Origin: Tuwongella immobilis
Lineage (GTDB): Bacteria; Planctomycetota; Planctomycetia; Gemmatales; Gemmataceae
DNA length: 64,000 nucleotides
Assembly: GCF_901538355.1 (NCBI RefSeq)
Contig: NZ_LR593887.1
Location: 2,642,920-2,706,919 of the forward strand
Direction: 5' to 3'
Part shown: positions 33,779-37,488 of the stretch, one piece after another
Layout: the number at the start of each line of letters is the position of its first letter
Numbering within the stretch: the stretch's first letter is position 1
Program-made: the position numbers and the translations under genes
Notes under the pieces: generated by a model
The model's database searches: none
What the model was told of the DNA's origin: nothing
The model's input: only the letters and a program-made list of their open reading frames with translations

Positions 33779-34555
33779 TTATTCGCGGAAGACGTTGTGG
33801 CAGGCGGTGCAGGAGGCATCCAGCTTCTTGAACGAAGCGGCGGCGGTCTTTTCGCCCGCTTTGCCCTTCTTCAACGCGGCGACCGCGTCGGTGGCATTCT
33901 TCTTCATTTCGTTGGACCACTTCACCCAGTTGGCCTTGGTCTTCATCGAACCTTCGTCATCCGGGGCCATCGCAGCGGTGAGTTCCGCATAGGCTTCGAG
34001 CTTGACGCCGAGGCTGATGGCTTCATCGACATTCTTGACCGACTTGGCGAAGTCCCGCACGGCCTTTTCGTAGCCACGACCATTGGCGCGTTCGATTCGG
34101 AACGGGCTCATCAAGGTGTGCAGTTCAAAGTCGTGCAATCCAACCAAGGTCACGGGGGCGGGATTCGCCGAGGCCGAAGCCTTGATATCCACCGACAAGC
34201 CGCTGGCCAGCTTGGTCGCGGTGGCCAGATCCTTCTTGTTCACGGCGGCGGCGACTTCCAGGGCGGCATCGCGCAGGGTGGCGAGTTGCTTGGCGTCGCC
34301 GGTTTTGGCCGCGATTTGATTTTGGGCCAAGTGTGCGATGATGAATGCGGCGGTCTTCAACGTCGGCAGCGCCTTATCGGCCTTCGGTTCGCCCAGTCGC
34401 TTCTTCAAATAGCTGATTTCGGATTCGACGGCGGCTTGGAAATCGCTCGTGGCAACCGCGGCGGCTCGGGCGCGATCGCTGGCAGAAATCGCCAGTAAGC
34501 CCAGAAACAAGCTCGAAAGTCCCATCAGGAACCAAGGGCGCGTTTGGATCTTCAT
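33779..34555 (-). CDS. Exported cytochrome-c-like protein with a single C-terminal CxxCH
   Basis: This 258-residue protein has a signal peptide (LMGLSSLFLGLLAISASDRA), a helical body rich in Lys, Ala and Thr, and one heme-attachment motif CTACH at 249-253, near the very end. A heme c site at the end of a four-helix-like body is the layout of cytochrome c'-type proteins, though overall similarity is weak. The electron or ligand partner is unknown. ATG 34555 has GAGGAG 7-8 bases upstream; an upstream GTG at 34564 is also in frame. Confidence 0.75.
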   Translation of the reverse strand: MKIQTRPWFLMGLSSLFLGLLAISASDRARAAAVATSDFQAAVESEISYLKKRLGEPKADKALPTLKTAAFIIAHLAQNQIAAKTGDAKQLATLRDAALEVAAAVNKKDLATATKLASGLSVDIKASASANPAPVTLVGLHDFELHTLMSPFRIERANGRGYEKAVRDFAKSVKNVDEAISLGVKLEAYAELTAAMAPDDEGSMKTKANWVKWSNEMKKNATDAVAALKKGKAGEKTAAASFKKLDASCTACHNVFRE

Positions 34556-34942
34556 CAAGGTCACTCCTCATGGTGTCGGGTCAAAACCGGTGCCACCGAC
34601 AGCTTTCTCCAATTGGGAAGGCCTGACGGCGCGAGACGATCGGCACGATGGTAGGCATCCGAAAACGCCCTAACCTCTGGTCCATTCTAGGTCCACAGCA
34701 GATCAATGCAACGAGTTTTCCAGATTTCACCGGACGGACCGCGAGCGACCGAAGCGCGGCGGGATCGGATGGGAAACTCCGGCATGCGTCGCTGAAAAAT
34801 CCACTTTCGGAACTTGATTGCACTCGCTTGCAGGGGCTCCAATTCGTATGATAATTTTGGTCAGCGGCCGGCTCTCGCACGTCTGAGACACGTTGACTGG
34901 CAACTGATCTGCCGTGGGATCGAGGATACGGGGCGCACTCCT
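34556..34942. other. Intergenic region between divergent genes
   Basis: About 387 bases separating the cytochrome-c-like gene (minus) from the kinase fusion gene (plus). It holds a candidate plus-strand promoter (34828-34855). Nothing else was identified. Confidence 0.5.
34828..34855 (+). promoter_or_regulatory. Candidate promoter of the kinase/HD-GYP fusion gene
   Basis: TTGCAG (34828-34833), a 16-base spacer and GATAAT (34850-34855), 87 bases before the ATG at 34943. Confidence 0.5.
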
Positions 34943-37234
34943 ATGAGCTTGTCTTCGGGTTCGTTCTCCGCGCGAACGGATGCTCATCCGAGCTTCGCTC
35001 AAATTCATCGCTTTCCGCGACCTGCCGCCCAGTTGCTGGAAGAATGCCGTCGATTGAATCTGTTCGATGCCGTCACGTTTCGGGATTTTCTCCAACGTGT
35101 CGGCGAGCGATTTGCCGAGATGACCACCCGCGAGCGAGTCGGGCAAACGCTCGTTGCGGCTGGGATCCTTACCGAATACCAACTGCAGCGACTCCTCTCC
35201 GGACAAACGCACGGCCTGGTTCTTGGCCATTATCGCATTCTGGACAAACTCGGCAGTGGCACCGTCGGATTGGTATTCCTGGGTGAGCATGTGCTGCTGC
35301 GTCGGCGAGTTGCCATCAAGGTGCTGCCGGTCGATGATACCTTTCCCATGGAGGTCATCGAGCGATTCCACTCCGAAATGCAGGTGCTGTCGAATCTTCG
35401 CCACCCGCACATCGTCACCGCATACGATGCCGGAATCCTCCCCAGTCCGGAATTGACCCTTCCAACTTTGCATTATCTGGTGATGGAATTAGTTGGTGGG
35501 GGCGATTTGGAGCAGTATCTTTACACCCGGAACGCTCCGCTGGATGTGCCGCAGGCGTGTGAGTGGATTCGCCAAGCGGCGGCGGGATTGCAAGAAGCCC
35601 ATGACCATCATCTGATCCATCGCGATCTGAAACCATCGAATCTGCTGTTGAGCGATGACGGAATCATCAAGCTGGTCGATTTTGGTCTCGCTCGGCAATT
35701 TTCGAGCAGCCTGACCCAGCCGAACGCCTTATTGGGCAGCCTGGAATTCATGGCTCCCGAACAGAGCCTCGACCCCACCAGCGTCGGCGGTGCCGCCGAT
35801 ATTTACGCGCTCGGGGCGACCATGTTTTGGCTGCTCACCGGGCAGACGCCATTTGAAATCACCAATAATTTGGTGCAGATGATGGACGATCTGCAAAACT
35901 CCCGACCGCGGCGCATGCGGGAGTTTCGTCCGGAAATTCCGGAAGAGTTGGACGCATTCGTCGATTCGATGCTGGAACGCGACCCAGCCAAGCGACCCGG
36001 CTCCCCGATTGCGGTCATGAACGCCCTATCGCGGTATGCCACCCCGGCACGCACGACCGTGATGTCGGACATGGCCCTGGTCAATACCGCGTCGATTCCG
36101 CAGATGGAGCCGTTCGTATTCGATCCCAGCATTCTTGTGGCGGCACCCATTCTGGTAGTTTCGGTTGATCCGCGAATCGAAGCATTTCTAAGCAAACAAC
36201 TCATTCCGAAGCTCGGCCATCAATGTACGGTGGCGAAGCCTGAGGATGCTCTGCACATCGCGCAGACCCAAAATTGCTCGGTGTTGATTGTCGAGAATCG
36301 GCCGCAAGTCTTTGATGCGAAAGAACTTTGCCAAAAGATTCGAGAACGGCCCGCGCTCGCCAGCCTGCGGATCATGTTGCTGCAATCATCGGCGACCACG
36401 CGGGACTTGGCCCAGGGATTGGAAGCCGGAGCCGACGAGATGCTCCCCTGGCCGGTTGATCCGGTCTTGTTGGATGCCAAATTGCGGTATCTGTTCCGGG
36501 CACGATCATTGCTGGAACAGTTGAACGCATTCAATCAGCACCTCCAAGCCGCACATCGCCAATTGGAGACCAGCTTGCAGGCCCGCTTGGGCGATATTCG
36601 CAAGTCGCAAGATGCGATGCTGTTCGCCATGGCGAAGATGGCCGAAGCGGCAGAAGGGGAATCCGCTGGGCACCAAACCCGCTTGAAGCGGTATGCGGTG
36701 CTGCTGGCCGAGGCGTTGCGAGATGACGATTCCTGGCGTGGGATTATCGACAAGAAATTCCTGGAATATCTCGATCGCTGCACGCCCATTCATGACATCG
36801 GCAAAGTCTGCCTGCCGGATCATTTGCTGTATAAGAGCGGCCAGTTGACGGAAAATGATCGAGCGCAGATCGAGGCGCATCCGGTCGTGGGGTGGTCGAT
36901 TCTGGAATCGATCAGCAAAGAGTACGGCACCAGCATGGGGTTCATGAGCTTTGCCAAAGGCTTGGTGCGGCACCATCACGAGCGGTTCGATGGTCGCGGC
37001 TATCCGGATCGACTGGTGGGCGATCAGATTCCGCCGGCCGCTCGCATTGTTGCACTGGCGGATGTCTATGATGCCCTGCGTCGGCGACGGATTCACAAAG
37101 CGGCGGTCAGTCATGCGGATGCGGTGACGATGATTCTGGAAGATTCGACCGGCCAATTTGATCCCAGCATTGTGCAGGTGTTTGTGCAAGTGGCCGCGCA
37201 GTTTGATCAGATTTTCCAATCGATCCCCAATTAA
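34943..37234 (+). CDS. Ser/Thr kinase - degenerate receiver - HD-GYP phosphodiesterase fusion
   Basis: This 763-residue protein holds three signalling modules in order. A Hanks-type kinase domain (about 97-370) has LGSGTVG, VAIKVLP (Lys126), HRDLKPSN (His226-Asp228), DFGLA and APEQ, so it looks active. A receiver-like domain (about 400-520) opens PILVVSVDPRIEAFL; where the phosphoacceptor Asp should be the sequence is LIVENRP, and the usual Lys is Trp (LPWPVDP), so it cannot be phosphorylated normally. An HD-GYP domain (about 560-760) has GHQTR (His577), HDIGK, EAHPVVGW, HHHERFDGRGYP and LADVYDA, a full metal-ligand set for c-di-GMP hydrolysis. A coiled segment links the last two. The protein lacks transmembrane helices and is cytoplasmic. 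Confidence 0.88.
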   Translation: MSLSSGSFSARTDAHPSFAQIHRFPRPAAQLLEECRRLNLFDAVTFRDFLQRVGERFAEMTTRERVGQTLVAAGILTEYQLQRLLSGQTHGLVLGHYRILDKLGSGTVGLVFLGEHVLLRRRVAIKVLPVDDTFPMEVIERFHSEMQVLSNLRHPHIVTAYDAGILPSPELTLPTLHYLVMELVGGGDLEQYLYTRNAPLDVPQACEWIRQAAAGLQEAHDHHLIHRDLKPSNLLLSDDGIIKLVDFGLARQFSSSLTQPNALLGSLEFMAPEQSLDPTSVGGAADIYALGATMFWLLTGQTPFEITNNLVQMMDDLQNSRPRRMREFRPEIPEELDAFVDSMLERDPAKRPGSPIAVMNALSRYATPARTTVMSDMALVNTASIPQMEPFVFDPSILVAAPILVVSVDPRIEAFLSKQLIPKLGHQCTVAKPEDALHIAQTQNCSVLIVENRPQVFDAKELCQKIRERPALASLRIMLLQSSATTRDLAQGLEAGADEMLPWPVDPVLLDAKLRYLFRARSLLEQLNAFNQHLQAAHRQLETSLQARLGDIRKSQDAMLFAMAKMAEAAEGESAGHQTRLKRYAVLLAEALRDDDSWRGIIDKKFLEYLDRCTPIHDIGKVCLPDHLLYKSGQLTENDRAQIEAHPVVGWSILESISKEYGTSMGFMSFAKGLVRHHHERFDGRGYPDRLVGDQIPPAARIVALADVYDALRRRRIHKAAVSHADAVTMILEDSTGQFDPSIVQVFVQVAAQFDQIFQSIPN

Positions 37235-37263
37235 ACTCGATTCGATTCACGCATTTCGTTGCC

Positions 37264-37287
37264 AAGCCAGTGGGATTCCGCTGGCTT
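37264..37287 (+). terminator. Weak hairpin after the kinase fusion gene
   Basis: AAGCCAGTGG (37264-37273) pairs with CCGCTGGCTT (37278-37287) with one wobble and a GATT loop. No T tract follows, so it may only slow transcription. Confidence 0.4.
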
Positions 37288-37488
37288 GTGTCATTTCCGC
37301 AGTTTTCCGCATTTTCCACAATCTCCCGATTGGGTGAATTCCTTCGATTCTGCGGTCACTCGTCGGGCGGATCGCGGAAGTCGCCAAAAAACTTTCTCAG
37401 GTTTTCCCGGTGGATGGTCGATACCGAGACTACGCTTTCGGCTCGTCGGAGGCATGGACTGCTTTTCCCAGGCTCGGGGGACGCCAGG

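What the first reader, a model, noticed from the sequence alone, without database searches (positions are those of the whole stretch)
34943..37234. Ser/Thr kinase, pseudoreceiver and HD-GYP phosphodiesterase fused in one protein
One 763-residue chain holds an apparently active Hanks kinase, a receiver-like domain whose phosphoacceptor Asp is replaced (LIVENRP) and whose conserved Lys is Trp (LPWPVDP), and an HD-GYP domain with all metal ligands. This would link Ser/Thr phosphorylation directly to c-di-GMP breakdown, with the receiver serving as a phosphorylation-independent relay. The combination is unusual as far as I know.
Basis: partly seen in the sequence, partly recalled or inferred. Interest (0 to 1): 0.75.

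Follow-up and report, generated by a model that had tools for sequence, protein, structure and literature searches.

The report
Kinase–receiver–phosphodiesterase fusion with dead receiver
A planctomycete protein joins a protein kinase, a signal-receiver domain that has lost its phosphorylation site, and an enzyme domain that probably destroys the messenger c-di-GMP; the three-part protein proves to be a common family in this bacterial order, usually with a working receiver, and this copy belongs to the one branch where the receiver has decayed while both enzymes look intact.

Summary
Window 34943-37231 (+) encodes 763 residues: N-terminal helical region, Hanks kinase (97-354, all catalytic motifs), receiver fold (399-526) and HD-GYP domain (563-743, all eight PmGH-type metal ligands). 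The receiver is degenerate at every catalytic position (DD to S407/V408, D to E451, T/S to Q481, K to W503) but still folds as a receiver (AF2 pLDDT 94.6; Z 20.6 to DivK). It is a multi-paralogue family in this planctomycete order (75 of 102 genomes match; no full-length match in 293 sampled genomes of other orders), and this genome carries a second copy with a canonical receiver. Outside this protein's clade, 68 of 70 scorable receivers are canonical; inside it 8 of 15 are degenerate, one homologue has deleted the receiver, and degenerate receivers evolve about 2.5 times faster than their own kinase and HD-GYP. Best reading: an RpfG-type phosphodiesterase that gained a Ser/Thr kinase; in this branch the two-component input was lost, leaving the kinase as likely in-chain input and the receiver as a structural relay. 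c-di-GMP activity and kinase control are untested.

The parts
34943..37234 (+). STK-pseudoreceiver-HD-GYP gene, 763 aa, ATG start
34988..35212 (+). N-terminal helical region (res 16-90) that precedes the kinase throughout the family, function unknown
   Evidence: helices at pLDDT 82-92 for most of its length; conserved positions G74, L76, T77, Q80, G87
35231..36004 (+). Hanks-type Ser/Thr kinase domain (res 97-354), catalytic residues K126, E145, D228, N233, D246; invariant T258 in activation loop
   Evidence: Pfam E 1.3e-50; PknB Z 31.8; motifs
36044..36133 (+). disordered linker (res 368-397) between kinase and receiver, with several Ser/Thr
   Evidence: pLDDT under 50
36137..36520 (+). degenerate receiver domain (res 399-526)
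36161..36166 (+). S407-V408 in place of the receiver's acidic pair
36293..36295 (+). E451 in place of the phospho-accepting Asp
36383..36385 (+). Q481 at the conserved Thr/Ser position
36449..36451 (+). W503 in place of the conserved Lys
36461..36655 (+). continuous helix (res 507-571) from receiver alpha5 into the HD-GYP domain
   Evidence: AF2 model, part of it (533-551) under pLDDT 50
36629..37171 (+). HD-GYP phosphohydrolase domain (res 563-743), ligands E573, H577, H617, D618, H646, H678, H679, D707
   Evidence: Pfam E 8.6e-26; PA4781 4r8z E 1.7e-43, PmGH 4mcw E 1.2e-21

Best explanation
It is a member of an order-wide planctomycete family made by fusing a Hanks Ser/Thr kinase to the N-terminus of an RpfG-type receiver-HD-GYP phosphodiesterase. 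Typical members keep a phosphorylatable receiver and so could take two inputs: Ser/Thr kinase state, and a histidine kinase. In this protein's branch the receiver lost its phosphorylation chemistry while both enzymes stayed intact. Proposed mechanism: the kinase domain, by autophosphorylation (T258 and the linker Ser/Thr are candidates) and/or dimerisation, sets the position of the receiver, which now acts as a passive dimerisation and spacing module; the long helix 507-571 passes this to the HD-GYP domain and changes hydrolysis of c-di-GMP. Shown: architecture, residues, predicted folds, distribution, relaxed receiver evolution. Inferred: kinase activity, c-di-GMP as substrate, and that the kinase controls the phosphodiesterase.
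For: Domains and motifs; folds. Family: 75 of 102 order genomes at E <= 1e-70, most top hits full-length; canonical paralogue in the same genome at G000:C1:219642-221834. Outside the order only receiver-HD-GYP, HD-GYP or kinase-only hits were seen, one of them a 51%-identical kinase-free receiver-HD-GYP, as expected of the parent form. Receiver decay is concentrated in this clade: 8 of 15 scorable against 2 of 70, on a tree with 100% SH-aLRT support for the clade. Every clade member with a readable kinase keeps K, D, D, and all keep the HD-GYP ligands scored. Receiver depth relative to own kinase and HD-GYP: median 2.5 in degenerate members, 1.5 in canonical clade members, 1.2 outside.
Against: No activity data. 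The relay by the kinase is inferred from fusion alone; kinase-free members of the family exist, so the HD-GYP can probably work without it. The full-length model has pTM 0.47, so domain arrangement is unknown. Fast receiver evolution could also mean adaptation to a new ligand. The rate comparison and the 8/15 against 2/70 count treat related sequences as independent.
Confidence: 0.6

Rival explanations
1. Pseudoreceiver as an active, phosphorylation-independent switch: the receiver binds a ligand or partner, or E451 mimics the phosphorylated state, so that HD-GYP is held in the active form.
For: E451 occupies the Asp position, and the nearest relative L007 also has Glu there; the fold is kept. 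Asp-to-Glu can mimic phosphorylation in NtrC (work cited in the reference list of PMC4395418).
Against: The acidic pair, Thr/Ser and Lys that read the phosphoryl state are lost here as well; other clade members carry K, S, Q or D at this site; one homologue (L071) lacks the receiver. No conserved new signature.
Confidence: 0.15
2. The kinase is an output or scaffold and not an input: it phosphorylates other proteins, and the fusion merely co-localises Ser/Thr and c-di-GMP signalling, or c-di-GMP turnover controls the kinase.
For: Some family members have a degenerate kinase with intact HD-GYP (L050, L067, L079) and others a degenerate HD-GYP with intact kinase (L087-L091), so the modules can be used apart.
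Against: In this clade both stay intact wherever readable, as expected if they work together.
Confidence: 0.17
3. A decaying paralogue on its way to pseudogene.
For: Receiver degenerate and evolving fast.
Against: Open frame of 763 codons with all kinase and HD-GYP catalytic residues kept and ordinary divergence in those domains, in homologues about half diverged.
Confidence: 0.05

Closest known systems
RpfG-type response regulators (receiver-HD-GYP), e.g. PA4781 (PDB 4r8z)
   Same: Receiver, helical linker, HD-GYP in that order; PA4781 is the closest solved HD-GYP (E 1.7e-43).
   Different: Has an N-terminal Ser/Thr kinase and a receiver that cannot take the Asp phosphoryl group; keeps the Glu (E573) aligned to the PmGH metal-site Glu, where PA4781 has another residue.
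PmGH HD-GYP phosphodiesterase (PDB 4mcw)
   Same: All eight metal-ligand positions are matched in the alignment (ligand identities from own knowledge).
   Different: No kinase or receiver; other N-terminal input domain (own knowledge).
PknB/PknA/Stk1 Hanks kinases
   Same: Kinase fold and motifs (Z 28-32).
   Different: No PASTA part; fused to receiver-HD-GYP.
Aspartate-less receivers / pseudo-receivers (PMC4395418; PMC12632262)
   Same: Receiver fold without the phosphorylation residues.
   Different: The main texts of these two reviews do not mention HD-GYP; here the pseudo-receiver sits between two enzymes.
Planctomycete Ser/Thr kinases with accessory domains (PMC11032199, PMC8567305)
   Same: Multi-domain STKs of Gemmataceae-type planctomycetes.
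   Different: Main text names WD40/TPR fusions; a receiver or HD domain is not named there; supplementary tables could not be read.

Membership tests
HD-GYP phosphodiesterase | HD domain plus HHExxDGxGYP motif and metal ligands | tested here: met
   RHHHERFDGRGYP; E573, H577, H617, D618, H646, H678, H679, D707
HD-GYP phosphodiesterase | hydrolyses c-di-GMP (or 3'3'-cGAMP) | not testable with these tools
   GGDEF, EAL and PilZ genes exist in the genome; substrate unproven
Hanks-type Ser/Thr kinase | G-loop, VAIK Lys, HRD, DFG, APE | tested here: met
Hanks-type Ser/Thr kinase | phosphorylates Ser/Thr | not testable with these tools
   no assay
Receiver domain of two-component systems | (beta-alpha)5 receiver fold | tested here: met
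   homology to the PleD receiver E 1.2e-10
Receiver domain of two-component systems | acidic pair, phospho-accepting Asp, Thr/Ser, Lys | tested here: not met
   S407-V408, E451, Q481, W503
Aspartate-less receiver / pseudo-receiver | receiver fold lacking the phospho-accepting Asp | tested here: met
RpfG-type response regulator | phosphorylatable receiver controlling HD-GYP | tested here: not met
   receiver degenerate here; residues present in its paralogue in the same genome (L092)

The most novel reading that the evidence does not exclude
A one-chain switch in which a Ser/Thr kinase controls c-di-GMP breakdown in cis, evolved from a two-input ancestor (kinase plus histidine-kinase-fed receiver) by stepwise loss of the two-component input, with living intermediates from canonical receiver to deleted receiver.
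Probability: 0.4. Interest if true: 0.62.

Novelty: new variant of a known kind. Interest (0 to 1): 0.45.

Why it matters
If the kinase controls the HD-GYP in cis, Ser/Thr phosphorylation and second-messenger breakdown would be joined in one polypeptide, and the family would be a natural series (canonical receiver, partly degenerate, dead, deleted; and kinase-dead or HD-GYP-dead branches) with which to test how one signalling input is swapped for another.

Tried and rejected
Rarity: rejected, the architecture is common in this planctomycete order. Chance or mis-framed ORF: rejected by homology over the full length. Long ORFs (548-974 aa) in other orders looked like candidate fusions; of those fetched, none had a kinase match in the stretch read (some open frames run past the stretch). 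Fold search with the whole 763-residue model was filled by kinases, so the receiver was modelled alone; that alignment holds canonical homologues, which helps the receiver fold to appear. Upstream RNA structure: not more stable than shuffles, z 0.72. Promoter and terminator matches are at or below chance numbers. Two papers that may list the architecture (an HD-GYP census and a Gemmataceae protein-architecture paper, recalled from memory) are not held. A search for a Streptomyces precedent of a Ser/Thr kinase acting on c-di-GMP enzymes gave nothing usable.

Full report
Observation. The reading frame 34943-37231 (+) gives 763 residues. Pfam finds Pkinase (97-354), HD_5 (563-743) and, below its cut-off, Response_reg (404-514, 24.5 bits against 30.2). 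All kinase motifs are present, and the modelled kinase is closest to PknB (Z 31.8). The HD-GYP domain is closest to PA4781 among solved structures and keeps every metal-ligand position aligned to PmGH, including E573, where PA4781 differs. The middle segment is a receiver by sequence (PleD, E 1.2e-10) and by predicted fold (pLDDT 94.6; DivK Z 20.6). It lacks the residues for Asp phosphorylation: acidic pair S407-V408, E451, Q481, W503.

The family. A search of 102 genomes of the same order with the receiver-HD-GYP part, and then with a full-length canonical homologue, shows that kinase-receiver-HD-GYP is a multi-paralogue family: 75 of 102 genomes match at E <= 1e-70 (the threshold also admits some kinase-only or receiver-HD-GYP-only matches; most top rows run from about residue 40 to 760 of the query). 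The genome of the window has a second copy with a canonical receiver. In 293 sampled genomes of the phylum outside the order there was no full-length match; the three matches covered only the kinase or only receiver-HD-GYP (only three candidates per genome were scored). A receiver-HD-GYP search of the class and inspection of long or close hits found no kinase fusion outside the order, but one kinase-free receiver-HD-GYP protein 51% identical to the family. A named-genome scan likewise gave the kinase fusion only in two Planctomycetia assemblies. The simplest history is one fusion of a kinase to an RpfG-type protein in this order.

Receiver decay. On a tree built without receiver columns, the protein sits in a 17-member clade (SH-aLRT 100). 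Outside it 68 of 70 scorable receivers are canonical; inside, 8 of 15 are degenerate. At the phospho-site the clade shows E (twice), K, S, Q and D. One clade member (L071) has no receiver at all; L086, outside the clade, has also lost it. With topology fixed, the receiver's depth divided by the mean of kinase and HD-GYP is 3.4 for this protein, median 2.5 for degenerate clade members, 1.5 for canonical ones and 1.2 outside. Kinase and HD-GYP catalytic residues stay intact in this clade wherever readable. So the constraint was relaxed on the receiver alone. The sequences are related, so the counts are not independent events; the parsimony minimum for loss of the Asp is 2 changes, and 6 for loss of Asp or Lys.

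Mechanism. The genome encodes four GGDEF, one EAL and two PilZ matches besides four HD_5 matches, so c-di-GMP signalling is plausible. I infer that typical members take two inputs and that this one takes only the kinase input in cis, passed through the receiver fold and the long helix 507-571. Kinase activity, substrate and direction of control are inferred. The full-length model has pTM 0.47 and says nothing about domain arrangement.

Literature. Full-text searches found no description of this architecture. The planctomycete kinase survey names other fusions in its main text, and its supplementary tables could not be read, so the architecture may be tabulated there. Aspartate-less and pseudo-receivers are a known class.

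Organism. One contig of 6,690,754 bases. The size recalls Tuwongella immobilis (own knowledge, untested). Two related assemblies found by name are Planctomycetia.

Noticed in passing
L087, L088, L089, L090, L091: Family members with intact kinase motifs and (except L091) a canonical receiver but with HD-GYP metal ligands replaced (e.g. LADIG, IYDIG, LMDVG for the HD motif; Tyr, Phe, Arg or Glu for the first His): branches in which the phosphodiesterase seems to be dead.
   Followed up: partly
L050, L067, L079 (L076 partly read): Family members whose kinase has lost its catalytic residues (e.g. HGCLGPRS, HRRLNPST, HGGLHPGS for HRDIKPSN) with intact canonical receiver and HD-GYP.
   Followed up: partly
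L025, L027, L043, L059, L060, L070: Kinase-free receiver-HD-GYP proteins nested among kinase-bearing members in the tree: secondary loss of the kinase or gene fission.
   Followed up: partly
L068 456-2789 and 1441-2700: Kinase in one frame and receiver-HD-GYP in another, overlapping: a frameshift in a near-complete genome, real or a sequencing error.
   Followed up: no
L071: Homologue in the same clade (HD-GYP part 48% identical) with the receiver deleted and the kinase joined to HD-GYP by a short linker.
   Followed up: partly
L178, L180: In another family of the class, receiver-HD-GYP followed in the same open frame by the start of a second receiver.
   Followed up: no
L001 499-2097; L186: FHA-like and GAF-like regions joined to HD-GYP in this genome and a relative (domains judged by eye): a possible phosphopeptide reader of the same kind of Ser/Thr kinases.
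   Followed up: no
window 33779-34564 (-): Divergent neighbour, secreted-looking protein ending in CTACHNVFRE, weakly cytochrome c'-like.
   Followed up: no
window 37263-37288: Inverted repeat CAAGCCAGTGGGATTCCGCTGGCTTG just after the stop codon, a possible terminator with a weak T tract.
   Followed up: no
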